DNA of 64,000 bases, taken from assembly GCA_030374765.1 (NCBI GenBank), contig JARGXX010000117.1, positions 930,001 to 994,000 of the forward strand, read 5' to 3'. The stretch is from Agarophyton chilense (Eukaryota > Rhodophyta > Florideophyceae > Gracilariales > Gracilariaceae). The notes beneath the pieces were generated by a model. It was not told the origin of the DNA, searched no databases, and worked only from the letters and a program-made list of their open reading frames with translations. The translations under genes and the position numbers were made by a program. Of this stretch, positions 2,880 to 60,548 are shown in pieces; position 1 is the stretch's first letter; the number at the start of each line of letters is the position of its first letter.

Positions 2880-3313
2880 CAAGGGAGGTGTGGAGAAACA
2901 TGTAAATGTAAAAAACGGGAGCGAGGGTGCGGATTTCAGTGCTCCAGTTAGCTCTAGAGAGCTAGAGAGGGCGAGGAAGAAGGGAGGGCGCGACGATGAG
3001 GGCAGCTCGACGAAGGATCAAGAAAGCATTGCGAGTTGAGTTTCCAACAGGGCAAATTTTTTGGGACGCCCCGTGATCGTGATGCTCAGCAGATACTGTA
3101 ACCTTACGCAGGCGCGTGTCGTGCAAGCGTGCAACGCGTGCGCTACACGCACTGTAGCCAAAGCGCGCGGCGACGCGGCTCTGGCTGTTTTTCACCACGC
3201 GACTTTTGCTTTCGACGCGTTGCGCTGGCCGAACACAGACGGCGTGTCGCCGTTTCTTCATCTGCCCCCTCACTCCTTCTTCCTCCTCCCTCCTCCCTCC
3301 TCCGTCGCTTAGC

Positions 3314-9048: not shown

Positions 9049-9930
9049 CTAGTACTTCGGTGTGGTATCTACGCAAAGCAGCTTTTCAGCAACAATCAGT
9101 TGTGTTTGCGTAAGTTTGCAGAGATATGCGACCATCAGCAGATCGCGCATGTTGTCACCAAATAACCTTTCGAAATCAGATGCATTCATCCTTGGCACCA
9201 TTGTCAACGTTTCCGCCAAAAATCTTCCGGTTGTAACATCGCCTTCTATCTCTCCAGCGACAACGGCATCCACATTTTTTCCGATAGTATCCAATAGGTC
9301 TAAGAGCCTTTCCATAGATTTCTGAAGGTTTTCGATTTCGGAAGCCATAACAGGGGACGAGAGATCACCTTCCTCCCTTCGTCTGTTCTTGAAAAGGACG
9401 TCGAGACCTACCTTTTCTGCTTTCTCTGGTTTCATGCAAACAGGAATGGAGCGGAATTCGGAACTCAGAGCAAGCTCATCGATCTTGTACGCGGTTGAAA
9501 CAAAGGCACTCATATCAAATCGGTCGCTAGACAACTCAGCATCCACTAATAAATGGACTGGATTTACACACTCCCGTCCATAAAATTCATGAATGATGAC
9601 AGACTTAAGATCCGTCTCAGTTCCAGTAGCGTACCATCCAACAAGCTCCTCTGCTGAGTTCACCCTGTTGTGAAGGCCGTACATATTGTTATTGTAGTCT
9701 GTATCCACTGCGACTTCTTCACCGTTTTCAGAATGTGGTAATGGAAAAGAATCAGTTACGTATACAGTGCCTGATGCAGTGAATCGTCCCAACAACGTCC
9801 CAATCACTCGCTTTTTCCCCTCTGTCCGGCGAATGAAATGATCTAATACATTGAATAGGACAACTGGAGAAACCTGAACCTCACGAACTCCGCTATCCTC
9901 TCCGCCAAGGAAGATATCGGTTGACTCCAT
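9049..9930 (-). CDS. EIF3F: translation initiation factor eIF3 subunit f (MPN protein)
   Basis: A 293-residue protein starting at the ATG at 9928-9930. The N-terminal MPN domain starts with VQVSPVVLFNVLDHF, then RVIGTLLGRF, DTDYNNNMYGLH, VGWYATG and VIHEFYGRECVNPVHL, which follows human eIF3f segment by segment. The residues of the JAMM zinc site (HxH and the distal Asp) are not complete, as is normal for eIF3f, which is a structural subunit. The C-terminal half (after about residue 190) is the helical region that packs in the eIF3 PCI-MPN core, with LVAYLCKLTQTQ-like wording near the end. It acts in the cytosol in 43S pre-initiation complex assembly. Length fits the family. Intronless. Confidence 0.92.
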   Translation of the reverse strand: MESTDIFLGGEDSGVREVQVSPVVLFNVLDHFIRRTEGKKRVIGTLLGRFTASGTVYVTDSFPLPHSENGEEVAVDTDYNNNMYGLHNRVNSAEELVGWYATGTETDLKSVIIHEFYGRECVNPVHLLVDAELSSDRFDMSAFVSTAYKIDELALSSEFRSIPVCMKPEKAEKVGLDVLFKNRRREEGDLSSPVMASEIENLQKSMERLLDLLDTIGKNVDAVVAGEIEGDVTTGRFLAETLTMVPRMNASDFERLFGDNMRDLLMVAYLCKLTQTQLIVAEKLLCVDTTPKY

Positions 9931-33681: not shown

Positions 33682-35027
33682 TTTTCCTTCATCGCCGAGA
33701 ACCCACGGTAGCAGCGCGTTTACGAGAACTCCTCACCAGGGCCACCTCTATGTCAGAAACAACACAAGTAGAACCCCATAAGATCGAAGTAATTAGAGAG
33801 AATATTCCCACAGGGCTTGCTGGCCTTCTCTGGCCCCATCTCCGAGAGCTGTGTGCAGCCCACGTGGATTCCATTGTGGACATGCGACTCGCTACGGCGA
33901 TCGCTGATCATATGGATTACCTGGTTACGCGAATCGTCCCCAAGGTCATGGGGTCTGGACTATTCTTAGACTCCCTCTTTTAGGCCATTCAAGGAGAATT
34001 CCCCAGCCAGTCAGGCAAAGCGGTCCCTAGGACCACTCTACAAGTCAACCATCCGGCTTCCATATGGCAACCCTCTACTGAACCCCCAGGAGTGGCGACA
34101 TTACCCGCCCCTCGCCGGGAACTCCATCAAGAAAATCCAATGGAAGGACAATCGAGGAGCAGAAGAGAGGCTCCGCGTCTAGATGAGCGACAGATTGCCC
34201 TACCCAAATAACAATTTGAGGTACAGCGACCTCAGGGCTCCATCAGATCTGATATAGAGATCGATCCTTTAGGTACGTATTCCACTGGAGAGAAAAGAAG
34301 TAACCACAGGAGAAAGAAGAACAGAAGAAGCAAAAGAAGAGACCATTTGGACACGATTGATTCCGAATCGGCCTCGACCGAAAGGACCGACTCTGAAGTA
34401 GATGAGGCTGACGTTCGAGGCCTCAAACCAATGACAACCACAAACAAACTTTTCCTTAAGGTTCTAGACTACCTGAATAATTGGCTGGCCGACAGGTCTC
34501 CAAAATATTCTAATTCGTTGCCTCGAAGAGTCGCCAAGTGGGCCAGATGGATGCAACCAACCATTACGTACAAATTTTCGGGTTCCGATCCAATTGCGGT
34601 CCTTATGTTTCTCAGTTTCTTCCGTACGGTCTGTGATCAGAGCGGTGGCCACGAGGGCATCGCTGTGTCCCTATTTCAATTCTTTCTTACAGGAAAGGCG
34701 CGTGACCGACTGGTTTCGAATCTATCATGCACAACTGACCTCCTGGATGCTCAAGACCGTGAGCTCCTAAGGCCATACCCTCAGGAGGTTGTTCATTACC
34801 TCTTGGAAACTTACGCAAAGGATGAAGTTATAATGGATGCCCACCAGGAAGTCATCTCCTTTAGGCAGAGCTCCAACATGACCGAATCGGCTTTCGCAGA
34901 CGACCTATGGAAGAAAGTTCACCGATGTCGAAATTTTTTCTCCGAAGGACGGCTCAAATGGCACTTCATCATGGGATTACTCCCTGACATTCGGACAGAT
35001 GTCTGCAATTACCCCACGGAAAATTAA
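33682..35027 (+). pseudogene. gag remnant of Gypsy A
   Basis: One frame stays readable through two in-frame stops (TAG at 33981-33983 and TAA at 34208-34210). The later part, 34347-35027, contains TTTNKLFLKVLDYLNNW, KFSGSDPIAVLMFLSFF and FFLTGKARDRLVSNL, wording typical of Ty3 gag capsid helices. A polybasic stretch (KRSNHRRKKNRRSKRR) precedes it. It would have formed the particle of the element. No zinc knuckle could be found after it, perhaps lost in the disrupted 35028-35850 stretch. Confidence 0.65.
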
Positions 35028-35849
35028 CAATACTCCTTCCGAAGGCTCGTTACGTATGCCGAGGGTTATGGCCAAACCTACAGAACTTCCAGGCGGAATA
35101 CTGATATATATAGAGCACACGCAATTCCATTGTGTAAACCCAACCAAGCCTATTTGGTTAGCTCCACGAAAGCGGACATGGATTCACGACTCCATTACGC
35201 CGATTCTGGAGATGTCCTCCCGGTCAATTTCAGTGCTCCTCCGTCTGGACCCCCATCATATACCTTCCAGGGAAATAAAGGGACCACTGGACCACCCACA
35301 CCCAAGTATTCTCCTTTTCCGCCCCGCAAGGACGTTTTGTGTTCGAGCCCCAAGGCCTTGCTTCCTCTGCCTTTCCATGGCCCGCCCAACCTTGTTACTG
35401 CAAGAGGTATCTACCTTAGGACGCACGATAAAACTTCTTAGCTTTTAGAGATGAGAAAATTTTCGAGTGCGGAGATCCGAAGGAATGTTTCACAGGGCAC
35501 AGCAACGAACCACAGGGACCCCTGGAAGCTCACGCTATGTCAAGCGTCCGAATACTTTGATCAAAGCCCTACAGGTCCACGCCATTGTAGATCTTACGGA
35601 CGACCCCGAAGAGGAAACCTATCCTCAGGAAGAAACGGAAACCCCATCGGAAAACTCTTAGAAGGTCGATGCGAGGTAAATCCTCCCTCTTTAAGCCCGT
35701 GCCTCAACCAATTGCACGGTCATGAGCCAAAGAGCTCTTCACCACCCAATACAAACCACCCAGAATGGACCACTCAGGTTGAAAAACAAATAGAACACAG
35801 TAACGACCCTGCCTGTATCCTCAGGAAAGAGAATTCCGAAGTTTGAGTA

Positions 35850-37981
35850 ATCATGGGACTTCGTTCGAACAACTCTCGAGTGCCCACAGCCGTATTGGAC
35901 ACTGGCTCTGGTCGCAACTTGGTCCTTCCTAAACTATTCCCGTTTGGCTGGCACAAGTTCAGTCAGGATAAGGAACATCCCCAGAAATATCGATGCATCA
36001 CGTAGACCAATGGACATTAAAGGAATAGTACCTTTTTACCTACAATTACGACAATTTAAAGTCCGCACGTTGTTCCTTGTATGTCCTAACTTGGGCGCTG
36101 AGGCAATCCTTGAGGCTTTCTTTATCGATCGATTCATTAAGGCCATTTATCCAGGCCTTAAGAAAGTCGCGATCTACCGGGCACCTTTTATGTCCATAAC
36201 TGGTTCCGCCCCAGGGCCAGAAGCGAGCCGGAAACGAGCGGTTGTCTCCGAGAACAAGAAGTCCAATAAGGTTCGCCTTTCAAAGGCCATAACGATACCC
36301 CCGATGAACCCAATCGCTGTATCGGTCGATTCCCAGTTTTCAGGTCTCGTAAAGACTCAAAACCACCTGAAAACTGTTTTGAAGCATCTTACGTTGAAGG
36401 CCAATGAAGTAATGGACATCCCCCCCAACAGGCACTTCTTGGTCACAATCAGTCACTTCGGAGATAAACCCGTACGGTTATTTAAAGGTACAGTGATTGG
36501 CATCACTCTACACACGCCCGTGGTTGTCATGGAGGCCCAAATGAATAACTTTTCAACGCGAATTCTCGACGAGGACAGGGACTCTTGGGAGGGGAGAGTC
36601 GCTATTGGCGCAGAATTCGAAGCTTATAGGCCCCAGGTACGCGATCTTCTCAGGAAATACCCGGCCATGTGGTCAGGTAGATTGGGCAACATTAGATCCA
36701 TTACACACCGCATTGACCATCAGGATGATGCTAGACCACGGTTCCGCACCCATGCCGTACAGGCCTTAAGGGTAGGGAAATGGTCGCCGACAGATGGACA
36801 AGATGCGCAAAGCTTAAGTCATAGAGCTGGCGCCCCCGAACAAATCTAAATGGGCAAGTCCCCTTGTCCTCGTGGCGAAGAAAGATGGCTCCGTCATGTT
36901 CTTTGTCGACAACAGGAAGCTGAACGCAGTAATCAAGAGGGACTCATACCCACTACCACACATGAATAACTGTCTGGATTCCTCGGGCGAAGCTGTCGTA
37001 TTTACCACACTGGGCGCTAGCTCCGGATATTGGAAAATCCCTTTGGCCGAAGATTCGAGAGCGCTGACAACCTTTACCACCCATGAAAGTCTGGTCAGAT
37101 TTACTCGTATGACCCTTGGTTTAAAGAATGCACCATCAACTTTCCCACGGGTAATGGACATCATACTGTCCACAGTCAAATGCAAATCCGCCTTGGTCTA
37201 TTTCGATGACGTTTTAATCTTCTCATAGACCGTAAAGAAACCCCTTCGCCACTTGAGGAAGGTGCTAACAATCATACAGGACGCTATAGTAACACTGAAA
37301 CTCCGCAAATGTGCTTTCTTCCAGGTCTCAGTGGACTTTCTCGATCACGTCGTTCTCCCAGAAAAGCTAAAGGTAGCCACAGGGACCACAATTGCGATTC
37401 GCAAGGCTAATCCTCCTAGTATTCACACGGAACTACGATCCTTCGTGGGCTTGTGCAATGTTTACCGACGGTTCGGGCAAGGGTTTGCCACGATCTCGGC
37501 CCACCTTAACGCTATGCTGAAGAAAGAAACACCTTCGGAGTTCGAAGCTCTCATCGACGACCAGTACGAGACATTTCAGACCCTAAAAGACAAATTGCTG
37601 AACCCCCCTATATTGGCTTTACCAAACCCCGAGAGGCCCTTTGTTGTGGATACAAACGCCTTTGATGTACAAGTGGGATGTGCACTGCCACAGGAACAGG
37701 AGTCACCGAAGGACTATCGACCTACTGGATATTGGAGCAAAACGCTCACCAGCGCGGAGTGTAACTACAGAACTACCGAAAAGAAATGTCCAGCCTTCGT
37801 ATGGTCCGTATTAACACTCCGTCCATACCTAGAGGGAACCAGGTTTACCATTAGGACAGATCATGATTCACTTCGCTGGTTACTCAATATAATCGATGCA
37901 TCAAGTCGCCTCGCTACGTGGCTCCTCAAGCTGTCAGAATATGACTACGTCAGAACCTGTAAGCCAGGCATCAAGCACTAA
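35850..37981 (+). pseudogene. protease, reverse transcriptase and RNase H remnants of Gypsy A
   Basis: The protease active site VLDTGSGRNLV is at about 35892-35920. A frame at 35944-36849 carries the protease-RT linker, ending near a RT entry block. RT is at 36872-37228 with DNRKLNAVIKRDSYPLP, LGLKNAPSTF and catalytic YFDDVLIFS, then a TAG stop. Immediately after, 37253-37981 reads RT thumb and RNase H: SFVGLCNVYRRF, PFVVDTNAFDVQVGCAL (Asp-to-Asn changes in the first catalytic block, usually TDAS), EKKCPAFVW and TDHDSLRWLL, ending in a TAA just before a recognisable ADALSR. The stops make the enzyme non-functional. Confidence 0.8.
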
Positions 37982-38401
37982 GCAGCAGATGCCCTGTCGC
38001 GAATCATCGTCGGTGGAACAGATGAAAGTGCATTGAAAGACCTAATTCCTACCCCCTTCATAGATGATGGACCTCAGGGTTATGTGGAAACCGATGACCT
38101 TATGGGTAGGATCCAATCGGATGATCCTGAGGTAAAGAAGAACGAAGTATACCTATTGGACTTGGAGACAGTACTGCCCAATTCGACACCACCTTAGATT
38201 ATTGCAATAGCCCCGGAGGAAAAAGAGCCCGCCCCTCAAACTATTGCGGAACTCCTACAGGCGCAGGTCGAAGACAAGTACTGCATGAAAACAGCCCAAT
38301 TGGTAGGAACCCCTGGATGCATATTCGACTGAGACCGATTTAGACTACTGTGTCGCCGCTCACCACTGAATAGCTCACTCCAACCGATAGTACCAAGACC
38401 A

Positions 38402-39140
38402 TTGAGGGCGCCATTCCTATACCTCGCCCATTTCCCTCGCTTGGCTGGTCACCCTGGAGGCCGACGAATGTACAAGACCCTAAGGAAGTTCGTCTACTGC
38501 CCACCAATGGCGCAGAACCTATGGAAAACTGCACGGAACTGTACATCGTGCGCACATATCCGAGGGTCTCGCGCCAACCATCAGGCCGAATTGAAGCTAT
38601 TTTCCGCCGCAGGTCCGATGGAATTTGTATCAATGGATGTACTTGGGCCTTTGCCTAGGTTGTTCCATGGGAAACGGTTTGTTTTGGTTATAACCGATAG
38701 GTTTACCAAACTCACCCGAGCCCTACCCCTAGGGAGGACAACGGCCACGGATTTCGCCACGGCCTTCTTTTCCCACTGAGTATATCCATATGGCATGCCC
38801 TTCTACCTCCCTACGGATAACGGCAGCCTGTCTGTATCCAAATTCTTCTCACACATGTGCTACCTTGCGTATAAAACATGTGACCACCACGGCGTACCAA
38901 CCGCAAACCAATAGGCAAGCCGAACGCTTCAACCGCACCCTTCTGGACCGACTGGCACACTACGTATCGGAGCACCAATTGGACTGGGACGATTATGTTG
39001 AGCCACTGGTTTATGCCTACAACGTGCAAGTGCACGCTTCTACGGGAGACACACCTTTCGATCTAACGATAACAAGGTCGCCAACGGCGATAGCTGTTGA
39101 CCTTCAGGATTCCATTATTCCCCAGGACATAACCGAATGA
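38402..39140 (+). pseudogene. integrase remnant of Gypsy A
   Basis: The zinc-binding part reads HFPRLAGHPGGRRMYKTLR with later CTSCAHIRG, followed by the catalytic core SMDVLGPLPRLFHGKRFVL (first Asp) and a TGA replacing the Trp of the usual HWVYPYG-like turn. The second frame (38790-39140) carries YQPQTNRQAERFNRTL with the third catalytic Glu, then a helical tail. A second acidic residue lies in the disrupted bit between. At 39141-39377 the post-core AQRRYKINFDKAVW and a GDLVYL element remain. Confidence 0.78.
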
Positions 39141-39744
39141 ATGACTCCTACTCAGGCGAAACGCTACTCGCGCCGACGCATCGACCGCATTATCCAATCG
39201 ACCCAAACTATACAAACCAAAGCCCAACGGCGCTACAAAATCAATTTCGACAAAGCCGTTTGGGACACACCGACCTTTGGGAAAGGAGACCTGGTTTACC
39301 TGGACCGGCTACAGAAGAACAGTGAAAAACTCGAGAACACTACGCGGAAGCTCTTACCCCGCTCTACGGGACCATAAAAACTCCTTGAGGCCAATCAACA
39401 TACCATTACGTTACTAATTGAGGGCTTACAAGACACCGTATCTATTGACCAGGTGACACGAGCCCCCAGCTCTCCCGGACCACCAAAGTCCCAGTCCCCT
39501 GGCCCAACGGAATCACTACGACCTCTGGTCGACGCTCCAGTCCCCAAACCCTCTCAGGCAGATCTCGCGGACCCCAATAGCCCCATCGACCCCATGGTCA
39601 ACGCCACTGACGATGACCCATCTCTTCCAATCAACTCCAAAAGGATTCGCCCCTCTGGATCACACTCTTCTTCCGGAGAATGAAGATCAACCGGAATACG
39701 TGATTTAGCGCATCATCTCCGCCGGTCGGGGAGAAGTTGGAACT

Positions 39745-47083: not shown

Positions 47084-48460
47084 ATGATCGACGTAGGCTT
47101 CCTCAGTTACATTCCGGTTGAGAAGTTCACCTCTTCGATAAAATACATAGACTCTACTTTGTACTGTCTATCGGCTGTGACCCTTGAAAAGTCACCCTGG
47201 TCTGATGTCAAGGCCACTGTGGATAAAGTCCACAAACATGTCTGCGGACATGCATGTTTCAGTGACTTCAAGCTGCTGTTGCAACGCAATACTCTATGGA
47301 AACATACGGTTGCAAGGTATGTTGCGGACACCGTGGCTAGCTGCACAGCCTGTCGATCAACTGCAGTTCCTCCACCAACTCGGAAAGTGTCGATATGCAC
47401 TCTCTCGAAGTCATTCAATGACGTAGTGTGCATCGATCAATTGTTCCTAGATCAACTGTGTCTCTTGCACATTATGGATCTGGTGTCGAGATACTCCACA
47501 GCCTACGTTGTGTCAACAACTGCTCTTCAAGAAGCGGTCATAGCATTTGAAGGAAGTTGGGTGTCGGCTTTCTGGTACCCCTATGCCATACGTGGCGACA
47601 AAGCCCTCATGTTAGGCGCATTTCGAAATTATTGTGACTCGCTCGGAATACCCCTGCACCCAGTTGAAACCCGCCGCCTTGCTAAAAACGCAATAGAATC
47701 TAAACACACGATCATAAAGAGCGTGTTTCTCCGCCTCAAGGCAGAGGCGGGCGACAATTTTGATACTATTCTATCGACCTACAAATGTGTGACCATCTCC
47801 AACGATCTCTACGGTAAGGACCAACTCTCGGCATTCAAATTGGCAAAAGGGTTCACGAAACCTGTGAAAATTAAGCCAATTGACACCTCCATTCCTGCTG
47901 AAACAATTGAAGCAAGAGACCAGTTCATTGCTCGAAGAAAGTTAGCACGGATTCTCAGTTCAAAGTCGATCATCGAAGTACCCATATCGACTGGAGACAC
48001 TGTAGAGGTTTTCATCAAGAAGGACAAGGAGAAAAGGGGTTATTGGTCCACCCCGAAGACAGTGACATCTGTCGACACACTGGCACGCTCCATCACGGTG
48101 CCAGGTAAAAACGGCAGAGAGATGACAGCTGCTTTTCAAGACACTCGGTTGTCGCTTCCAGATACTAACTTCTCAAAGCTCGTACAAGATGGCCTGGAGG
48201 CCATCAGCAAGGCGAATGACATTGAGCCAGTACTACCAATCATCAATGAGACCGAGCACAGCCGAGATGATGCTGACTCTCATGGCTTGGATGCCAACTT
48301 TGATGGTGATGACTATGGGAACAATGCCAACGTTGGAGATAGAGTCGAGGTCTTCTGGCCTCTTGACAACACCTGTTACCCGAGGACTGTACACTCTGAA
48401 GCTACGGAAGGGCATGTCAATCTATATTACGACGATGGTGAATTGAAGTGCTGGATATGA
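47084..48460 (+). CDS. Copia E pol part 1: integrase
   Basis: 458 residues open, no true start expected because pol is translated as one polyprotein. A pre-integrase zinc-like region (HKHVCGHACF, CTACRSTA) is followed by the core with acidic residues in CIDQLF, then IRGDKALM and a Glu in ETRRLAKNAIESKH, in the order D, D, E. The tail has a beta-rich 'TGDTVEVF' element and ends LYYDDGELKCW. The reading is then lost: the last codon before TGA should continue into DMTKQ, so one base (a G in a GG run near 48455) has been deleted. Confidence 0.7.
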   Translation: MIDVGFLSYIPVEKFTSSIKYIDSTLYCLSAVTLEKSPWSDVKATVDKVHKHVCGHACFSDFKLLLQRNTLWKHTVARYVADTVASCTACRSTAVPPPTRKVSICTLSKSFNDVVCIDQLFLDQLCLLHIMDLVSRYSTAYVVSTTALQEAVIAFEGSWVSAFWYPYAIRGDKALMLGAFRNYCDSLGIPLHPVETRRLAKNAIESKHTIIKSVFLRLKAEAGDNFDTILSTYKCVTISNDLYGKDQLSAFKLAKGFTKPVKIKPIDTSIPAETIEARDQFIARRKLARILSSKSIIEVPISTGDTVEVFIKKDKEKRGYWSTPKTVTSVDTLARSITVPGKNGREMTAAFQDTRLSLPDTNFSKLVQDGLEAISKANDIEPVLPIINETEHSRDDADSHGLDANFDGDDYGNNANVGDRVEVFWPLDNTCYPRTVHSEATEGHVNLYYDDGELKCWI

Positions 48461-49434
48461 CAAAACAATTTTTGAACTACACTGATAGCTTGCCTGCCAG
48501 CTCAAGCCAAGTGGCTGTGCCACTGGAAGTGGAAAGCAAAAAAGACAAAGTCCTAAAATCAATGCTTGATCACTTCGGAAACAAGCCTTTCCTTCAGCAT
48601 CAGGCGCAAGGGTTGGATCAGTATCCAATGCACAATGCGTACACCAAAGAAGAAGACAGCTTCCTCAAAACTGCTAAGCCAGTGTTTCGCCGGCTCGTTC
48701 CGCCCGGCTCCAACATAATAAGTAGTCATACCCTATATAAGATCAAACATAATGATGACGGGTCCCTGAAACTTAAAGCACGTATCGCACCGCATGGCAA
48801 TGAGGATGACATGAAAGATGAGCTTAGCAAAGACTGTGCAACTTGTCCTCCTACCGGTCTGCGCATCCTGGAATCGATAGCGTCGCTTCATGCCTGGACG
48901 CTACACAAGTCCGAGGTAACAGCTGCTTTTCTACAAACGGGAGAGACACAGGGGGATGTAAACGTAATGCCACCCAAAGAAAGTAGAATGAAGTCTACTC
49001 ATGTTTGGCTACTCTTGGCTGCTGCCTATGGATTGGTGAATGCCAACGCGAATTGGCAGAATGCGTCTGACACCGTGATGCGACAAATTGGCCTCTCACA
49101 GTCTGCATACATACCGCAGCTCTTCTACCAGAAAGAGAATGGAAGAACGGTTCTGATAGTAGCCAAAATCGTAGATGATCTCAAGGTGACTGGCGAAGGA
49201 GACCGTGCGAAAAGGTTCCTAGAAGACTTCAATGATAAGTTTAAGTTTGGCGTCATCAACAATGGCCCAGGAAAACTACGGTTCTTTGGAATTAACACCA
49301 TCCAAAACAGTGACTTTACCATCGATACAAACGTCGAAGACAAGCTTGGAGGTGTCATGGAATATCCCATCTCGCGTCCGCGACGAAACGAGTCCGCAGC
49401 AAGCCTCAACAAGATTGAGAAGTCTAAAGGTCAA
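48448..49434 (+). CDS. Copia E pol part 2: reverse transcriptase (truncated)
   Basis: The RVT_2-type RT is recognised from FRRLVPPGSNIISSHTLYK, KLKARIAPHGNED, LHAWTLHKSEVTAAFLQTG (with the HxxDV-like block) and YQKENGRTVLIVAKIVDDLKV, the catalytic IVDD. The frame then runs LRFFGINTIQ and stops making sense at about 49430, where the LTR of Gypsy B begins and the rest of RT and RNase H is missing. The usual right half is not found beyond the right LTR at 60549. Confidence 0.8.
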
Positions 49435-50312
49435 TGCCCTTCAAGGGGGTTTCTTCGCAGGACTTAGAGAGTTCGCTCGCTTGAGGACTAGCTTGGGCTA
49501 TGACAAGCTATACCGCTACTGCGTGCTGACGGCCGGTTAGGACCGGAAGTGCACACTGGTGGAACACGTGGACTGCACGGATGCCGACGCTCGAGTGCGA
49601 GGCGTGCCACACGTGGCCCGGATTCTACCTAATGATTAGTATTATTTAGTATTATTTAGTATTTATTTGGCTACGCTATCGCTATTTAGTGTCTATTTTT
49701 CGCGGGCGCGCCCACTGCCAGGGGCCGCGCGCCACGCTACTTAGGAGGTTGAGCACTGCTCCCCAGTAAACACCCTCTTGGGAGATACCAAGGAGGGAGT
49801 CTTGGCTCTGAACTTTTCGCCTTCGGCGCGTCTTCACCGCATAATGCGTGAGCGCCCGTGGCACGTTAGTTCATCCACCCCTTTGTCGACCAGAGTGCTA
49901 CCACCACCGTGCGTTCATATTTAATCGCCGACACTTGTCGTAGTCTCGCCTCTGTATAGGGTTTCGCCCCCGTTTTCTTCTTGTTCTCCTTTTTGGCTCT
50001 CGTGAGTGGCCACCTCACTCACCTCGCTCGTCCACCTCATACGAGTGTTTCCTCGGTCCTTTTCCGACAATCGCCGTGGTACCGCTCCGCCTAGTGTTGG
50101 TCACACCCCGAACTGTGCCGTGTTCACCTAAACACTCTAGGTATATCCCGCCGGATTGGCCTAGTTCTTACACCCGACTTCGTCGTGCCTATCCAGAGTG
50201 GCTCTGTTTCTGTGCTCCGCTGGGACGCGTCTCCTCCGCCTGAGGCGTGTCTCTCAAGAAAGGAAGATCCCGAACATCTTCGTGGTGTCTCCGCTCCAAG
50301 CATTGTCCTACA
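49435..50312 (+). repeat. 5' LTR of Gypsy B
   Basis: 878 bp starting TGCCCTTCAAGGGGGTTTC and ending GCATTGTCCTACA. Same family as the inverted LTR at 32816-33681. Contains a block of AGTATTATTTAGT units and a CATATTTAAT sequence at about 49917, a possible TATA-like element for element transcription. Confidence 0.93.
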
Positions 50313-50462: not shown

Positions 50463-52538
50463 ATGGATTCTGATCTCATGTCGTCCAAAGATTGTCCAAG
50501 GACGCGGAGTCAAACCGGTGCACCGGAACCCTCCCAACCATCCCGTATTCCGGACCGTTCACGGTCTTATACCGGTGGATCGACTGGCGTGCCAAGTGAA
50601 AGGACCTCGAGACCTCCTGTCTCTGATTCGAAAGCCCCAGCAAGTGGAGCAGGACCGGCGTCTGCCGCCGCCCAGATGCTCTCTCCCGCTAGGGACGTCA
50701 CTCTCCATCTCTGCTTTGCAGCTGTGGAAGAGCAACTCCACTCTATGCGGGAAGCTCAAGTCATCCTTGCAGAGGAGTTCGATTCCCTTCGCAATAAGGC
50801 AAATGACACTGCTACGCAGGATTTTTCTGAGGACCTCCGTGTCCTCCGTGCGGATGTGAACTCGATTCTAGAGTCCCTTGGTGGACCCTCTGCCTTTGTC
50901 AAGGACGTCGCGGACAAGTTCTCGCGCGTCCAAAGCCGTCTCGAGACGTTGGAACAAACGCTAATGTCGGGGGATGATCCGGCCGAGCCGGTTGCAGTAT
51001 CCCACAAGGGAAGAAAGGAAGAGAGCCGCCAGGCTCGAAAGAAGCGAAGGAACACGGATCCCGAACCGTCAGACTCCTCATCCTCGGAGTCCGACTCTTC
51101 CGATTCATCAGTGGAAGTAGCTCGCCGTGAGCGTTCCTCACGCTCTAAGCGGTCAACAGCCACCCATGGTGTGATCCGCGCCCGCACGAAGGGAAGGACG
51201 CACACAGGTTTGAAGGAGCTGAAACCGACCAATTCGCTCTTTAAGAAGCTCTTATCATACCGGTACTACCGTTTGGAGGACTTCTCTTTGGATCGTACAC
51301 CCCGTGGTACAGGAGGAGTGAAGGACTGCATTAAGCGAATGCAGTTCTCACTACGAAACCAGTTGTTTTCTGGAAAAGACCCAATACTGATGTTGGATTT
51401 CTTGGCACGCTTTGTCGCGGAAGCTGACATCCTTGGAATGAACGATGGACAGGCCTACATTGCCCTACCGTACTTCTTACGTGAGCTTGCAGAAGACCAG
51501 TATCACTCTGTCAGAGGTACATCACGCGCGTCCGAAGGAGGAGTAACCTGCTGGCCCGAAGCAGTTCAATACCTCCTGAGGTCGTATGCTACTAACTCCG
51601 CCATTCAGCAGGCGATACGCGCCCTGCGGGAAACTCGCCAACGTCCACGCGAGTCGGAAACCGATTATTCGTCGCACCCTAACAAGGCCTTCCAACGCTG
51701 TGGCAATATTTACCCCGCTGAAGAGCGTTGTACCATGTTTGGCGATGGTTTGGACCCGGCGATCCGGACTCTTGTTGCTCGACGTTGAGAAGATAGACCT
51801 AAAGCCACGTATTTGGAACTGGTGCAGTTCACTCATGCAGAAGGTGAAGCCCTGCTCGCACGCACTCCTGGATCCAGGCTAAGGTCCGCAAAAGGGTTGA
51901 TGTTACAACCGGGTACCCCGTCAGCTTCGATGATCGACGAACAGGCCTCTCGAAGGGATTATGATAACGTGCAGCTAGCCCATAGCGATGTTCATCCCAT
52001 CCCGACAACGGAGTTACCCTCAACCTTGGACGAATCGCAATACGTGATTGGGGATGACACGCTACTCTATGCGGATAATGGTCGCGTCCGTGCGCCACGC
52101 GTCCCACACGAGAGTGGTAATGTCTGCTTTTCGCGTCCTGGTTGGAGAGATACCCGCCCCGCGGTGAAGTTCGCCGAGCCTCGCCACCAAACGCCAGCTT
52201 CTGGTCTGATTTGTCATCTCTGCTACAAACCAGGCCATACTTCTCCACAATGTGTGTTGTCTCTCCGAGAATGGGCACAAGTCGTAGTCAATTACGAGGC
52301 TCTATCCCCGGAGGACAAAGCAGCTGTTCCGATTGCATCGTATATCCGTGCTCGAACGGATGTTCCACGTCACGTGTCACTTCCCCGAGGTCGGGTCGTA
52401 CCTGCACCGGAATCCCGTGTCACAGACGTGGTCGGTCACCCCACCGCTTCTGCGGAACCTTCTCGACCTGATGCCCCGGTGTTGCCTGCTCAACGTCCTG
52501 AGCAGCCGCCTCCGGCGGAGCAGGCCCAGAAAAACTAA
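50463..52538 (+). pseudogene. gag of Gypsy B, one in-frame stop
   Basis: Frame 0 from the ATG at 50463 to TAA at 52536-52538, about 690 codons with one TGA at 51786-51788. The N-terminal part is disordered and Ser/Arg-rich, then a coiled coil (VEEQLHSMREAQVILAEEF), a basic-Ser stretch, and the capsid core with TNSLFKKLLSYRYY, LFSGKDPILMLDFLARF and LPYFLRELAEDQY. A CCHC zinc knuckle, CHLCYKPGHTSPQC, is at 52212-52253. The tail is Pro-rich. Its job is the structural capsid and nucleocapsid. The TGA (LVARR-stop-EDR) would truncate most gag before the zinc knuckle. Confidence 0.82.
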
Positions 52539-52594: not shown

Positions 52595-55500
52595 GAGGCG
52601 TCCAAGCCTCGCTCCCCGGTCAAAATCCTTTCAAGGAAAGAGGCCGTCAGTGACGTGAACTCGGAACACTTTAGTGTTCTGCGTCGTCCGTGGAAACGTG
52701 TTTCCCATAACCGGTTCACGGATAGAGTTCTGGTGATGGCCAAGAGAAACTACAAGGTCTATGCCGACCTTGGCCTTTCACCCCAGTTTATGGTGCGACA
52801 CCTTACCGCCTTAGACACCGGTGCCGGTCCGAACTTTGTCGTGTAGGAAGTGTTATCGCCTGCATTGCAGTCTAGGATCCGCCGCGACCACGTCCCGGAG
52901 GTCGCTGACGGGAACAACAAACCGTTGGATACGGTGGGGTTCATAAAACTGGTAGTCCGCGTTGGCGCTCGCGTGGTGAAACTCGACTTCGTCGTATGTC
53001 GGAAATTAGCCGCCCCAGTCATCTTGGGCTGCGAGTTTTGCGACCGCTTCGTCGAAGCGATCTTCCCCCGCCAACGGCGTGTCGAGATGGAGGATGGATC
53101 GTCCACTCCGATCGTTCGTCGTCCGCTTAGGCGTGCCACGAAGAAGCACGTCCCGCTACCGGCAGCACAGGAACCTGGACCGGATAACCGTGAATCTTAT
53201 AAGCTCCGCGTCGCAGCGTTTTTGTGCATCCCGCCTGAGTACCAAATGATGGTGAAAGTAACCTCCCGTCAACACGGACTCCGGGTCTTGCAACCATTGT
53301 CGTCACTGTATGACAGGCACAGCCTTGCAATTGCGAATGGAATCGTCCATGTGGAGCCAAACCAACCGTTTCACGTGCTGATCGCCAATCTAGGCACTGT
53401 ACCCCAGTATCTGGTGAAGAACCAAGTGATAGAGTCCGTCATGCCGCACCCCATCGCTATGGTGCCGACAAAGCAGACCGCAGCTGACGTTCTCGGACTC
53501 GTTCACTCTAAGGAGGGGGACAGCCCAAAACCCGTTTCATCACCGGTACCCCGGGTTCAACCTGTAACATTAGGGACGCAGCCCGTTTCAAAGAGTGGTG
53601 ACCGCCCCGATCCAGTCCAAGAACTCGAGGACCTGGATCTTAGCCACGTCCCGGAGTCATGCAGCCATCGATTGCGAGAACTTTTAAGGGACTTCACCAC
53701 TATGTAGGACGGCTTCCTTGGTGAGATTGCCAGTACGGAACACCGGATTGATTTGCTACCGGACACCCGATCCATCTCTCAGCAACCATACCGTGCCGGA
53801 CCCGCCGCACGCGCGGAGGAAAAGGCACAAGTGGATAAAATGCTTCGGACAGAAGTCATTGAACCCGCTCAGTCGCCGTAGGCTTCTCCAGTAGTAGTGG
53901 CTCCAAAGCAGCATGGTTCCTGGAGGTTTTGCGTCGACTACCGTCGGTTGAATGCCGTCACCGTCAAGGACGTGTATCCAATCCCAATAATGGACGAGTA
54001 CATTGACTCGCTAGGAACCGCAACCGTCTTTACAACCCTGGACGGCAATTGGGGATACTGGCAAGTTCTGGTAAGGAAGCAAGACCAGGATAAAACCGCT
54101 TTCGCGTGTCACTCCGGTTTCTACCGTTTCAAATGGATGCCTTTTGGTCTTACCAACGCCCCCGCTACTTTCCAGCAAGCCATCGACATCCTATTGGCCT
54201 GCTTCAAATGGCGTACCTGCCTGGTCTACCTGGATGACATAATCGTCTTCTCAGATAATCTGGACAAACATCTCACTCAGGTGATGGATATCATGACCAC
54301 GCTACGAGATGCGGGTGTCACTCTTAAGTTGAAGAAATGTGACTTCTTCACAAACACCGTGAAGTATCCTGGCCATGTTATCCGTCCAAGACGTGTTACA
54401 ATCGAGGAGACTCGTGATAAGTCACTCAAAGAGGCTAAAGAACCGCGGACGCAAACCGAGCTTCGTTTCTTTCTGGGACTCGCGAACGTCTACCGACGAT
54501 TCATCCCGCACTTTACGGACAAGGCTGCACTGTTAAACGCGCTTTTGCGGAAAGGCCAACCACCAAAACTGGACCCCTTCACCCCCGTTCAAACGGAATC
54601 TTTCAACTCTCTTAAGGATTCTGTCGTCTCCGCCCCGATCCTCTCGTTTCCCAGGCCTGGAAGGCCCTTCACCGTAGATACGGACGCCAGCGACTACCAA
54701 GTAGGTTGTGCCCTGTTTCAAACTGCACCCAATGGCGAAAGACGCCACGTAGGGTACTGGTTCCGATCGCTCAACGTCCACGAGAAGAATTACTCCGTCT
54801 CGGAGAAGGAATGCCTTGCAGTAGTGTGGGAATTACAAAGGTTGCGCCCCTATCTCATGGGTAATCATTTCACCGTTTTTACGGACCACGCATCACTTCG
54901 ATGGCTACTTTCCATCTCGGAGCCTTCAGGCCGCTTGATGCGTTGGCTTCTCCGTCTAGCGGAATTTGACTTTGACGTGCAGTACCGAAAAAAATCGTGC
55001 AAAACCCAAGCCGATGCTCTCTCCCGCCTGGTCACTACTGGCGAAGCATTACCCGTCAAAGACGATGAAATACCATTCTTTGCAGTGAATGGCGACGACG
55101 CCACCATCGAGGACGAGGAACGAGACACGGTCTCTTCAGATTCCGGTTCCGAATTGGACGACTTTTTTCTCTCGGAAGATTCCGAGAAACCCTTACCAGG
55201 GAACTTCGTGCCTATTACTCCAAAGGAGATGATACGGAAGCAATTCGCTGACCCGTTCTGCGCGAAGGTCCGCGCTCAACTCAATGGTGGAGGTACTCTC
55301 CCCTTTTGGGTGAATGACGCCGGATACCTTGTACGGACCGTCGGATGGCCCCCACATATCGTGGCACCACATAACCTCCAGTCGGGAGTCTTGAGGTTGT
55401 CGCACTGCTCCAAACTGAGTGGCCACGTCGCGGGACGGAAACTTTACCTCACCCTACGCCGTAACTTCTACTGGCCTGCCATGACAGTGGACTGCTACGC

Positions 55501-57547
55501 AACGGCGCGGTTTTGTACCGATTGCGCTCGGAACCGTGTCAAGCTCCGCCGTCACGCGACGAAGTTGAAGCTGTTTCCAGCTCGCGCTCCATTGAAGTTG
55601 GTGGCCATCGATGTACTCGGTCCCTTCCTTATCACGAAGCGGAATTACAAGTTCTTACTCGTAATTTCGGATCGCTTCTCAAAGCTGGTCCGGACTGTAC
55701 CATTACGGAAGATCTCCGCTATGAGCGTGGCTCAAGCCTTCGCCCGACACTGGGTCTTCGTCTACGGTCCACCGGTCAACCTCCTCTCCGATAGCGGGAG
55801 ACAGTTCGCCTCTCATTTCTTCGAGGATGTATGTCGCATCTCGGACATTAAGAACCTGTTCAGGACCACTTACCACCCCCAAACTAATGGGCAGGCCGAA
55901 CGGTTCAACCGGACATTACTTGCGACACTCCGTTCATACGTTGCAGACCACCCCAAAGATTGGGACTTGTTCACTGATGCGCTCACCTTTTCGTACATTA
56001 CACAGGTGCACAGGACAACTGGATTAATACCCTTCGAGCTGGTACTGTCCCGTACCCCACCGCCCGTGGCGCTGGAACCACAGCCAACGCTGGATACCTT
56101 TCCATCACCGACTGCTTACGGCGAAGCGTGGAAAACTTGGCTCACGAAGCTCGTTCCCGCCGCACGGCGTTCCATGGGCCGAGCCCAGGCCGCTTACAAG
56201 CGTAACTTTGATACCAAAGCCCCTCGCTCGCCGCCACGTCTCGCCCCCGACGGTTATATATTCATCGGCAAGGAGTATTGGAACCCAGAGAAGGAGAAAC
56301 GCCACAAGCTGTCACGCGTTGCCGACGGCCCCTATCGGGTTATTTCGGTGGCTCCCGACACTGTCGTTGTTGACCTCGCTGGTAATCACGAACCCATCTT
56401 TCGTGATCGCGTGGTATCGGCTCCTCCGCCGTTAACATCTCAACCTACTGGTGTTACTGCTCCCGTTGAAACGGGTTCCTCGACCCCCTTACCCCAGGTC
56501 CACCCGCGTCCCTACGCGTTACCACACCCATCTCAGGGTTTGTCTGACCTTCCGCTACCCGCGGCGCCCAACCCGCAAGGAATAGTGTCGCGCATTCGTC
56601 GCTCCTCCCCAGTCCACCCGACGGACACCAAACCCGGTGCATCGTCTAAGGAGGGGAAGGCGCCCGACAGCCGTCGTAATCCGGCCAATACCGTCGCTGG
56701 AAGCGCCGCACCGTCGCGTGTCATTCTTCGCCCATCAGGGGTGCCTGATACTGACGTCCTGCACGACTCGACGCAGTCGCTATCCAAGCCTCAGACCGCA
56801 GCTGCGGATAACGCCACCAACACTCGCCGAGGTGTCACCACACGTGCAACACGGAATGAAAATGCGCTCGACGCACCGCAGCCTGATACAGTACGAGTGG
56901 ACGACGCACTGCCAAGTACCCCGCACAGGGAGGCGGATACATCCACGGCGCCGACGCCGGACAGCCAGCCATTCAAACGCTCACGTGACTACACGAAACC
57001 TCGCCGAAAGACAGAGAAGTGCGACAATGCGCCACCGCCCCAGCGAATCTCACCGCCGAAGCGAGCCTCACCACGCCGAATAGCGGAACGTTTACACGGG
57101 CTACCCGCTGGTGTGGGCCCTCCAACCGGAGTGGGAAGCGCCGAAACAAGCCCGGCACTTGGGGAAAATGAACCGCCGAACTCGGGTCGACATTCTACTC
57201 AGCCGAGGACTGCCTTGCGCGCTACACGGTCCGACCGGAGCGAAGCCGCCCAACGCGTGATCACTTCGGTACCCCCTGGCTCAGGACGGGTACCACCCGA
57301 AAATAGTGACACCGTCATACGGGATGGCCGAGAAGTGTACCGACAAGAGTTCGTGGTCGGACGCATTTTGGAGCACCCCTACCACCCAGAGGGGTATATC
57401 CAATACTTGGTCCGTTGGTACGGGTACGGCCGCGAATGGGATTCAGACGAAGCGATAGAGCACCTACCTCGGTCGAAGGTGGTACTGTATCATCGTCGTA
57501 CTATCACGGCTTTGCCGGCTACCATAGACCGAGCCCAAGTGGGATAA
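52541..57547 (+). pseudogene. pol of Gypsy B: protease, RT, RNase H, integrase, chromodomain; three TAG stops
   Basis: Pol lies in frame -1 to gag. Protease DTG is at 52814-52822. In-frame TAGs occur at 52844-52846, 53705-53707 and 53879-53881. From 53897 1216 codons are open (residue numbers from there): RT motifs FTTLDGNWGYWQV, GLTNAPATFQ and YLDDIIVFS (residues 111-119); RNase H with VDTDASDYQVGCALF and TDHASLRWLL; integrase zinc region (HCSKLSGH, CTDC), catalytic D572 (AIDVLGPF), D632 (LLSDSGRQF) and E668 (GQAERFNRTL), a D-D-35-E pattern; and after a Pro-rich linker a chromodomain at about 1148-1200 (QYLVRWYGYGREWDSDEAI). All catalytic residues are present. Only the stops and the lack of pol start prevent a complete protein. 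Confidence 0.88.
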
Positions 57548-57759
57548 GAAGACACCCGATGGGGATAAAGGAACAGAAGATCTGGATAGGGACCCTTGGA
57601 AGAAGGAGAAGATGAAAAAAAGACCTGGAGAAGGACACTCAGAAGAAGTGGAAGAGACGAAAGAAAACAAATACGTCATAGACAGAAGCAGTTTACTAGT
57701 TTCGAAGTTGCTGCACACACTACCACACAGCGGGATATACTAACCAAGATCAAAAGGGA

Positions 57760-59628
57760 TTAGTTGAAAGAACCCGGATTGCCGTGCGCGCAAACCGAAT
57801 CGCTAGCAGAGTTATTCCCGACGATCAGGCGTGCCACGAAGGCGTCTCTCATCGCACCGATGTATCCGCTCGCCACTTGCGTGTTCAGTCCAACACCCCG
57901 AAAGAACTGGGAGATCACGACCGCCTCTACACGTATGGGAACCTCAATAACTTCCGGTTCGTCCTGCAACGCCGCCGCCACTGGATCGATGACTTCACCT
58001 GCGTGAATCGCTCCCTGCGCCAGCTGCGCCGTAGTATCGGCACCATCGGGATCTCCAACGTCTTCCATGACCTCGTCGCCACGGTATTCACCCTCCTCCT
58101 CCGGGAGATCATCACCGCCATAGGCGTAGTAGAAGTCATCCGAGTTGACAAACCCCACGGGTTGCGGGTATGGTATGCCTCGCGGAGCCATCCGGAGTGC
58201 CGACGCCTCCGCCTCGAAGATCTCTTGCTGCTCCCATGGGTTAAAGAAGATGAAATCTCCCGCCAACAGCGTGCGACGCCCCGGAGATCGATCAGCCCCA
58301 CCGGCTTCTTGTCCACGGCCGCTCTGCCGGAAAGGCAAGACAGCCCAGTCGACACGCCCAATGACGTCGATGAGCTCCTGAGCTTCATCAGCGTTATTGA
58401 CACCTCCAAGAGGGAGTTGAAGGTCCAGCTGCCGGATGTAACCACGCAAACGCGGAGGAAGATACCACAGTCGATACTGGTAGTAGGCTTCCCACAAGAT
58501 GTACGCCGCGGCGCGGACTGCCCATCCGGTTAGGACCACGGACCGTAAGCCGGAGTGCGGATCCTTGATGAGGTACGAGCCCAGATAGGAGACGACTGGA
58601 GGCCACTCCACGTAACATCCCCGGCACACCTCGACGAAGGACCACCACCCAGGCAGGCGAACGTATCGCCCGAACTGATAGAAGGGACTAATCCGGTTTA
58701 TCTCCGTGTTCTGATAAGGGACAAGGAACCCAAAGCGGGATCTGCCCCGACGCTCCTCGCAGATGGAGTTCTGTAACCACCGATATTGGGACTCACGACG
58801 AAGGTGACGGAACTCGGCACGGATGATCGGACGAACCCAGCAGATTGCTTCTTGACGCGCTCGCGGTCGACCGCGCCATGCGTAAGTTTCCAACGCCGGA
58901 AGGCGGTCACAATAGCCGATCTCACCCTGAGTCCGGTACATCCGTAGGTCGAAGCCGAGTTCGTCGGGGATGGGGTATTGGAAGTTCGCCCGGCTGATCC
59001 GTGAGTAACCGATGCGGACGAATATACAATGCGCCTCTTCCGCCAACTCGCGCCTTCGCCGCAGAATCGCGTGAATGGGAACCGCCCCACGGCGTCGCCA
59101 GTCCCACGAAGTGGTGATCAAAGCCAGCAGCTCGCCCGGTAGACGCGCATTGCCATCAGCATACGCTGCCACGAGTTCTTCGTCGAAGATCGCTGTCGGA
59201 TGGAACCACGGAGCTCTCCGGAGAATCGCCGCAAGTTGACGCGGGTTTAACCCGACGAGTTCGTCGTAACTGGGCCAGGTGTCCTTCGCAGGAATGGTGT
59301 GGCTTGAAGCTTCAACGGGACCCCGGGATCGGCTCGGCGTGGTTGAAGAGACACTCTCCCGTGGAAGGGGAGCCGAATGGAAACTGGAGAAGTAACCCCG
59401 GCGGGGATTGTTACCACCGTTCATCAGGAGTACTGGTCGCCGAGGTATCGTGATGTGGTCGCGGGAAGTTAACGTACGATGTGGAAGAGCGCTCGAAGTT
59501 CGAGGAGTGGCTACCGCGTTGGTGAGTTTGTTGTTCGGTTGTGCAGCTCTGCCTTTGACAGTCGAGTGGTCGCTGGACGCGTTACGCGGCTTGCTCTTAT
59601 GTCGGTTCGAACGTTGCCTCCCCGCCAT
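57760..59628 (-). CDS. antisense ORF inside Gypsy B, unknown product
   Basis: About 622 residues from the ATG at 59626-59628, open without a single stop between pol and the 3' LTR, opposite to gag-pol. The upstream frame reaches the LTR border but has no ATG. The N-terminus is basic (RSNRHKSKPR), the middle is unusually rich in Trp, Tyr and Arg (QYRWLQNSICEERRGRSRF, AYYQYRLWYLPPRLRGYIRQ), and the C-terminal third is acidic (DDLPEEEGEYRGDE). No family is recognised. Antisense ORFs beside pol are known in some plant Ty3 elements (for example Grande), so a real accessory gene is plausible. Its intact frame contrasts with the stops in the sense genes. A transcript from within the 3' LTR or the PPT region would be needed. 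Confidence 0.6.
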   Translation of the reverse strand: MAGRQRSNRHKSKPRNASSDHSTVKGRAAQPNNKLTNAVATPRTSSALPHRTLTSRDHITIPRRPVLLMNGGNNPRRGYFSSFHSAPLPRESVSSTTPSRSRGPVEASSHTIPAKDTWPSYDELVGLNPRQLAAILRRAPWFHPTAIFDEELVAAYADGNARLPGELLALITTSWDWRRRGAVPIHAILRRRRELAEEAHCIFVRIGYSRISRANFQYPIPDELGFDLRMYRTQGEIGYCDRLPALETYAWRGRPRARQEAICWVRPIIRAEFRHLRRESQYRWLQNSICEERRGRSRFGFLVPYQNTEINRISPFYQFGRYVRLPGWWSFVEVCRGCYVEWPPVVSYLGSYLIKDPHSGLRSVVLTGWAVRAAAYILWEAYYQYRLWYLPPRLRGYIRQLDLQLPLGGVNNADEAQELIDVIGRVDWAVLPFRQSGRGQEAGGADRSPGRRTLLAGDFIFFNPWEQQEIFEAEASALRMAPRGIPYPQPVGFVNSDDFYYAYGGDDLPEEEGEYRGDEVMEDVGDPDGADTTAQLAQGAIHAGEVIDPVAAALQDEPEVIEVPIRVEAVVISQFFRGVGLNTQVASGYIGAMRDAFVARLIVGNNSASDSVCAHGNPGSFN

Positions 59629-59650
59629 GTCGACAGCGTGTTCGTCACCT

Positions 59651-59661
59651 AAGGAGGGGGA
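59651..59661 (+). other. candidate polypurine tract of Gypsy B
   Basis: AAGGAGGGGGA begins 23 bases before the 3' LTR, with a further purine-rich stretch to the LTR border. It fits a plus-strand primer site. It overlaps the 5' side of the antisense ORF. Confidence 0.5.
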
Positions 59662-59673
59662 TATGAAGGACAA

Positions 59674-60548
59674 TGCCCTTCAAGGGGGTTTCTTCGCAGG
59701 ACTTAGAGAGTTCGCTCGCTTGAGGACTAGCTTGGTCTATTACAAGCTATACCGCTATCGCGTGTTGACGGCCGGTTAGGACCGGAAGTGCACACTGGTG
59801 GAACACGTGGACTGCACGGATGCCGACGCTCGAGTGCGAGGCGTGCCACACGTGGCCCGGATTCTACCTAATGTTTAGTATTATTTAGTATTATTTAGTA
59901 TTTATTGGCTACGCTATCGCTATGTAGTGTCTATTTTTCGGGCGCGCGCCCACTGCCAGGGGCCGTGCGCCACGCTACTTAGGAGGGTGAGCACTTCTAC
60001 GCAGTAAACACCGTCTTGGGAGACCAAGGAGGGAGTCTTGGCTCTGAACTTTTCGCCTTCGGCGCGTCTTCACCGCATAATGCGTGAGCGCCCGTGGCAC
60101 GTTAGTTCATCCACCCCTCTGTCGACCAGAGTGCTACCACCACCGTGCGTTCATATTTAATCCCCGACACTTGTCGTAGTCTCGCCCCTGTATAGGGTTT
60201 CGCCCCCGTTTTCCTCTTGTTCTCCTTTTTGGCTCTCGTGAGTTTCCGCCTCACTCACCTCGCTCGTCCACCTCATACGAGTGTTTCCTTGCTCCTTTTC
60301 CGACAATCGCCGTGGTACCGCTCCGCCTAGGATTGGTCACACCCCGGACTGTGCCGTGCTCACCTAAACACTCTAGGTATATCCCGCCGGATTGGCCTCA
60401 GTCTTACACCCGACTTCGTCATGCCTATCCAGAGTGTCTCTGTTTCTGTGCTCCGCTGGGACGCGTCTTGTCCGACTGAGGGGTGTCCCTCAAGAGAGAA
60501 AGATGCCCATTATCTTCGTGGTGTCTCCGCTCCAAGCGTTGTCCTACA
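59674..60548 (+). repeat. 3' LTR of Gypsy B
   Basis: 875 bp, starting TGCCCTTCAAGGGGG and ending CGTTGTCCTACA; differs from the 5' LTR at scattered bases and by small length changes. Position after the polypurine tract fixes the orientation. Confidence 0.93.

What the first reader, a model, noticed from the sequence alone, without database searches (positions are those of the whole stretch)
57760..59628. Intact 622-codon antisense ORF between pol and the 3' LTR of a red algal-like Gypsy element
The ORF is longer than gag's intact part and has no stop, whereas gag-pol on the sense strand has four. Its composition (basic N-terminus, Trp/Tyr-rich middle, acidic tail) is protein-like and the codon frame is on the opposite strand to everything else in the element. 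Antisense ORFs are described in a few plant Ty3 elements but I know of none like this in red algae. It could be an accessory protein affecting silencing, packaging or integration, or a captured host gene. The contrast of intact antisense and broken sense genes suggests selection on it or a very recent, lucky copy.
Basis: partly seen in the sequence, partly recalled or inferred. Interest (0 to 1): 0.8.

Follow-up and report, generated by a model that had tools for sequence, protein, structure and literature searches.

The report
Antisense accessory gene in algal retrotransposons
A jumping gene in what looks like a red alga carries an extra protein gene on its opposite strand that selection has preserved across several related families, resembling little-understood antisense genes known from plant jumping genes and some retroviruses.

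Summary
In detail: a stop-free 622-codon ORF lies antisense between pol and the 3' LTR of a Ty3-type element (57760-59628, minus strand). It is a conserved protein gene. The same genome has at least 236 copies in three families, and two outside proteins match: Gracilariopsis chorda BWQ96_10156 (41%) and an unnamed one (50%). Where pol was found beside the ORF it lay on the opposite strand: 59 of 60 loci, 58 of 58 and 39 of 39 pairs. Between families, codon positions 1 and 2 are conserved while position 3 is near saturation (dN/dS about 0.1-0.3). Within the window family, widely shared changes show constraint (omega 0.475), copy-private ones little (0.93).

[quoted passage not shown] This protein family has no significant Pfam or PDB relative. 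Function is unknown; I favour an LTR-transcribed regulator of the element.

The parts
49427..50312 (+). 5' LTR (alignment bounds; the true start is probably a few bases later, at TGCCC)
   Evidence: local alignment with the 3' LTR, 837 of 883 identical
50463..52538 (+). gag frame, one premature stop
   Evidence: Retrotrans_gag hit just below the Pfam cut-off; stops
53897..57547 (+). open part of pol: RT, RNase H, integrase, chromodomain-like C-terminus; three premature stops lie in the pol frame upstream of this part
   Evidence: Pfam, stops
57760..59628 (-). antisense ORF, 622 aa, the subject of the finding
58129..59220 (-). conserved core of the antisense protein (residues 137-500), rich in Trp, Tyr and Arg
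   Evidence: invariant columns in alignments A1 and A2; codon-position test
59650..59661 (+). polypurine-tract-like sequence next to the 3' LTR; the antisense ATG lies about 20 nt inside it (about 30 in a family-3 copy, about 65 in a family-2 copy)
   Evidence: sequence read in one copy of each of three families
59666..60548 (+). 3' LTR; presumed site of the antisense promoter (inferred)
   Evidence: promoter not tested

Best explanation
It is a conserved antisense accessory gene of a Ty3-type LTR retrotransposon lineage with a chromodomain-like pol C-terminus, probably of red algae. Shown: the protein is conserved, its antisense frame has been under purifying selection in lineages that replicated, and in three families it lies opposite to pol wherever pol was found. 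In the one copy of each family inspected, it starts next to the polypurine tract and LTR start. Inferred: the message starts at an antisense promoter in the 3' LTR, because the ATG is only about 20-65 nt from the polypurine tract in those copies. Also inferred: the protein is a soluble factor that regulates the element's own expression or counters host silencing, as proposed for plant aORF-3R proteins and as known (in part recalled) for retroviral HBZ. I put about 0.95 on a selected protein gene and about 0.4 on the regulatory role; the single figure below is for the whole statement.
For: At least 236 non-overlapping copies in three families. Outside homologues P0001 and P0002. Pol on the opposite strand in 59 of 60 loci (the 60th, L018, has no pol match in its flank), and in 58 of 58 and 39 of 39 pairs. 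Between families, nucleotide identity at codon positions 1/2/3 is 0.54-0.67 / 0.65-0.73 / 0.34-0.39; NG86 dN 0.39-0.61 against dS 2.2-5.5, saturated. Window family, 30 copies: omega 0.93 for alleles in one copy, 0.66 in 2-3, 0.475 in 4 or more; stop-making changes 40 of 979, 2 of 245, 0 of 60; Fisher, one copy against more: p 0.0036 for N/S, 0.0015 for stops. Family 2, 30 copies: 0.81, 0.62, 0.50. The pol C-terminus in the family-1 copies, as positive control: 1.18, 0.93, 0.58. No stop within the matched stretch in 54 of 77 family-2 rows and 61 of 88 family-3 rows; these are the best-scoring rows, so they lean towards intact copies. No transmembrane-like stretch in 8 proteins (KD19 at most 1.44).
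Against: No transcript or protein evidence. No significant known domain, no PDB relative, and structure models too poor to use (pLDDT 30 and 35), so the regulatory role rests on analogy. No basic cluster shared across families that would suggest a common nuclear signal. The within-family test is not wholly frame-specific: the opposite-strand frame that shares its wobble position with the ORF also shows low omega for alleles in 4 or more copies, 0.69 in family 1 and 0.36 in family 2, the latter lower than the ORF's own 0.50; I read this as a shadow of the shared wobble position. Whether P0002 lies in a Ty3 element was not tested. LTR pairs were identified only for the window copy.
Confidence: 0.5

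Rival explanations
1. The antisense protein is a structural or trafficking partner of the particle or pre-integration complex (packaging, nuclear import or target choice), expressed from the antisense strand but working with Gag and Pol.
For: It accompanies gag, RT, RNase H and chromodomain-like sequence in the copies of families 2 and 3 read at length (L061, L062) and in the window, and it is kept in forms whose RT-to-ORF spacing shows loss of the integrase core (26 of 58 family-3 pairs; 5 of 39 family-2 pairs).
Against: A particle component would be more simply made from the sense strand; there is no domain or structural evidence.
Confidence: 0.25
2. The antisense transcript itself (dsRNA or interference with sense transcription) is the function and the protein is incidental.
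For: Antisense RNA roles are proposed for such elements (PMC7264820, passages).
Against: Codon-position pattern and amino-acid conservation across families and depletion of shared stops show selection on the protein. An added RNA role is not excluded.
Confidence: 0.04
3. A captured host gene carried as cargo.
For: The gene is antisense, like an independent transcription unit; this is weak.
Against: It lies opposite to pol in three families whose cores are only 41-54% identical; no other homologue appeared among the candidates scored in three searches. An ancient capture stays possible; eukaryote genomes other than the own one were not searched.
Confidence: 0.06
4. Envelope-like protein.
For: Position between pol and the 3' LTR.
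Against: Wrong strand; no hydrophobic span of transmembrane strength in 8 proteins.
Confidence: 0.02
5. A chance or neutral open frame in one lucky copy, as the reader's own contrast alone would allow.
For: Stops are scattered across sibling copies and copy-private changes are near neutral.
Against: Conservation between families and outside proteins.
Confidence: 0.01

Closest known systems
Antisense additional ORFs between pol and 3' LTR (aORF-3R): maize Grande gene23, rice RIRE2, Silene Retand, bean PvRetro13, Botrytis Boty (PMC7264820 and PMC11963269, passages seen)
   Same: Long ORF, antisense, between pol and the 3' LTR, conserved across related elements, role not determined
   Different: No TRP28 (PF04195), SMC or other significant Pfam domain here; the host looks like a red alga; the pol C-terminus is chromodomain-like, while Retand is described as non-chromovirus
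HTLV-1 HBZ and related retroviral antisense genes (as mentioned in passages of PMC11963269 and PMC7264820)
   Same: Antisense gene near the 3' LTR, presumed LTR-driven
   Different: No sequence relation seen; HBZ's bZIP domain (recalled) would have shown only through the Pfam scans; promoter and function untested here
Gracilariopsis chorda hypothetical protein BWQ96_10156 (P0002)
   Same: Homologous protein, 41% identity over 76% of the query
   Different: Its genomic setting was not seen, so membership in a Ty3 element is untested

Membership tests
Ty3-type LTR retrotransposon | LTRs plus pol in the order RT, RNase H, integrase | tested here: met
   LTR pair; RT, RNase H and integrase zinc-binding domain above cut-off, integrase core slightly below it (28.7 against 32.6 bits), in that order
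Chromovirus | chromodomain at the pol C-terminus | tested here: inconclusive
   PF00385 E=0.0094, below the curated cut-off; no RT phylogeny was made
aORF-3R class | ORF antisense to gag-pol between pol and 3' LTR | tested here: met
   window; pol opposite in 59 of 60 loci, 58 of 58 and 39 of 39 pairs; polypurine tract and LTR start beside the ATG in one copy each of families 2 and 3
aORF-3R class | present in all or most copies of the element and in related species | tested here: inconclusive
   at least 236 copies and two outside homologues, but the searches started from the ORF, so copies lacking it were not counted
aORF-3R class | transcribed from the antisense strand | not testable with these tools
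   no RNA data
Retand lineage | antisense protein with TRP28 domain (PF04195) | tested here: not met
   no PF04195 hit in 7 members at E up to 10 or in the family-3 protein at E up to 1
Env-like sense aORF | sense orientation and transmembrane segment | tested here: not met
   antisense; KD19 at most 1.44 in 8 proteins (the usual threshold of about 1.6 is recalled)
HBZ-like retroviral antisense regulator | promoter in 3' LTR and nuclear transcription-regulating protein | not testable with these tools
   only the position of the ATG next to the polypurine tract fits

The most novel reading that the evidence does not exclude
An ancient antisense protein family, unrelated to the plant and retroviral ones, is a core third gene of a red algal Ty3 lineage and works mainly for the copy that encodes it. 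Integrase can be lost and borrowed from relatives, giving amplified integrase-less forms, while the antisense gene is kept open on each copy, for example as a local anti-silencing factor.
Probability: 0.2. Interest if true: 0.75.

Novelty: new member of a known kind. Interest (0 to 1): 0.52.

Why it matters
Antisense accessory genes of LTR elements are described mainly in flowering plants, with a fungal case and some retroviruses, and their function in LTR elements is open (PMC7264820, PMC11963269, passages). A conserved and apparently unrelated protein family in the same position in a probable red algal lineage suggests that such genes arise and persist repeatedly. One genome with at least 165 copies in families 2 and 3, of which 115 have no stop in the matched stretch, and with natural integrase-less forms makes the question of what these genes do testable.

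Tried and rejected
Structure prediction of the whole protein and of its core from three sequences failed (mean pLDDT 29.7 and 35.0), so no fold search was run. Pfam, NCBIfam and PDB searches with the antisense protein gave only non-significant hits. Two scans of viral contigs found no relative. Three protein searches gave the same two homologues; each scored only the 7991 or 7992 candidates sharing most words, so more distant relatives may be missed. The other Gypsy remnant of the window carries no detectable copy. My first codon analysis was invalid because the loci were not oriented and was redone. A first pairing of family-3 hits used 65 of 130 RT rows and was repeated with all 130, with the same result. 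Nine answered paper searches showed in their listings no report of a red algal Ty3 element with an antisense gene; the library lacks most subscription journals. Of the papers I saw passages of PMC11963269 and PMC7264820, and listings with starts of abstracts of the others.

Full report
OBSERVATION. The minus strand of 57760-59628 holds a stop-free frame of 622 codons from ATG, open a little further into the 3' LTR. Randomised sequence with the same dinucleotide tendencies never reached this length (0 of 2000, maximum 451). It lies in an element of about 11 kb: LTRs at 49427-50312 and 59666-60548 (K2P 0.054), a gag frame, and a pol with RT, RNase H, integrase and a weak chromodomain. The ORF begins about 20 nt from a polypurine tract and ends 212 bp short of the pol stop, so it overlaps no sense gene. 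The sense frames hold four premature stops, one in gag and three in pol.

IS THE WINDOW COPY SPECIAL? No. The genome (79.76 Mb, 135 contigs) has at least 71 copies of this family, the others at 82-86% protein identity to the window. In the 30 best-scoring of these 71, the window copy included, 44 stops are spread over 24 copies and 6 copies have none. The mean of 1.47 predicts about 23% stop-free copies by chance; 20% are seen. Intact antisense against broken sense is therefore what luck gives. The 30 copies were the best-scoring and so lean towards intact ones.

IS THE PROTEIN REAL? Yes. Three protein searches found the same two outside homologues: P0001, unnamed (source code 'lgn'), 50% identity over 75% of the query, and P0002, Gracilariopsis chorda BWQ96_10156, 41% over 76%. 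With these as queries on the own genome I found two more families: family 2 with at least 77 copies and family 3 with at least 88. The 236 places do not overlap, and all counts are lower bounds, since only the best candidates were scored. In the core (residues 137-500) the window protein is 41% identical to a family-2 copy and 54% to a family-3 copy, with nucleotide identity at codon positions 1/2/3 of 0.54/0.65/0.34 and 0.67/0.73/0.39. Selection on the antisense protein is the straightforward explanation. dS is saturated, so the ratios (about 0.1-0.3) are rough.

WITHIN-FAMILY TEST. In the window family, changes private to one copy (mostly after insertion) give omega 0.93, changes shared by 2-3 copies 0.66, by 4 or more 0.475. 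Stop-making changes fall from 40 of 979 to 2 of 245 to 0 of 60 (Fisher p 0.0036 for N/S and 0.0015 for stops). Family 2 repeats this: 0.81, 0.62, 0.50, with stops 16 of 474, 1 of 74, 0 of 32. Of the five other frames, four stay near or above 1 for alleles in 4 or more copies. The fifth, on the opposite strand with its wobble position on that of the ORF, is low too: 0.69 in family 1 and 0.36 in family 2, the latter below the ORF's own value. I take this as the shadow of the shared wobble position, but it means that this test alone does not single out one strand; and the protein homologues do. The C-terminal part of pol in the same family-1 copies, a positive control, gives 1.18, 0.93, 0.58. Related copies are not independent, so the p-values are guides.

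ARRANGEMENT. Pol matches lie on the opposite strand in 59 of 60 fetched loci (the remaining one, L018, has no pol match in its flank). They lie opposite and on the stop-codon side in 58 of 58 paired family-3 places (58 of 88 found a partner among 130 RT rows) and in 39 of 39 paired family-2 places (39 of 77 among 138 rows). The polypurine tract and LTR start read alike in one copy of each family, with the antisense ATG about 20, 65 and 30 nt away in families 1, 2 and 3. A message for the ORF would then start in or very near the 3' LTR; this is inference.

INTEGRASE-LESS RELATIVES. The distance from RT/RNase H to the antisense ORF is two-peaked: in family 3, 26 of 58 at about 1866 bp and 32 of 58 at about 3150 bp; in family 2, 5 of 39 at 1670-1772 and 34 of 39 at 3018-3273. 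The short-form copies L061 and L062 match the window's RT/RNase H and chromodomain-like parts but not its integrase, and the frames given to Pfam show no integrase domain. Among the 130 family-3-like RT rows the two commonest open frames, 1847 and 1419 aa (8 and 6 rows, counted by eye), differ by 428 residues. The antisense frame has no stop in the matched stretch in 22 of 26 short and 20 of 32 long forms (Fisher p 0.08, not significant). So an amplified form has lost integrase and kept the antisense gene. This fits a gene that matters to its own copy, but the short forms may simply be young; their age was not measured, and only two of them were read.

HOW IT MAY WORK. The protein has a variable N-terminus, a conserved Trp/Tyr/Arg-rich core, an often acidic linker and a short C-terminal motif. 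It has no transmembrane-like stretch, no significant Pfam, NCBIfam or PDB relative and no usable model. By analogy to Grande gene23 (nuclear, transcribed antisense from a promoter upstream of it), Retand TRP28 proteins and HBZ, as described in passages of PMC7264820 and PMC11963269, I favour a regulator of the element's expression or silencing (about 0.4), then a particle or nuclear-import partner (about 0.25). An RNA-only role, an Env and a recent host capture are unlikely.

NOVELTY. The kind is known: aORF-3R, reported in plants and in Botrytis Boty (PMC7264820, passages). New here, as far as I could see, are the protein family, the probable red algal host and the evidence of selection. Nine answered paper searches showed no report of it in their listings; the library lacks most subscription journals.

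Noticed in passing
L062 (G000:C68:3137900-3146900), L061 (G000:C34:370200-379900); places: Families 2 and 3 each have a short form that lacks the integrase core but keeps gag, RT, RNase H, a chromodomain-like C-terminus and the antisense gene (read in one copy each); by spacing it makes up 26 of 58 paired family-3 and 5 of 39 paired family-2 places.
   Followed up: partly
G000:C68:3138517, 3147714, 3156911; G000:C77:296228, 305477: Head-to-tail family-3 antisense ORFs at 9197 and 9249 bp spacing with equal scores within each array, suggesting tandem elements that share LTRs.
   Followed up: no
window 34347-39584: A second, decayed Gypsy element (pol 39% identical over the matched part) with no detectable antisense ORF of this family.
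   Followed up: partly
window 47084-49540: Decayed ORFs that by eye look like integrase and reverse transcriptase (Copia-like) directly upstream of the 5' LTR; the Gypsy element may be nested in them, yet the bases flanking its two LTRs show no obvious target-site duplication.
   Followed up: no
window 57548-57670: Purine-rich sense strand just after the pol stop, in the gap between the convergent pol and antisense genes (seen by eye); role unknown.
   Followed up: no
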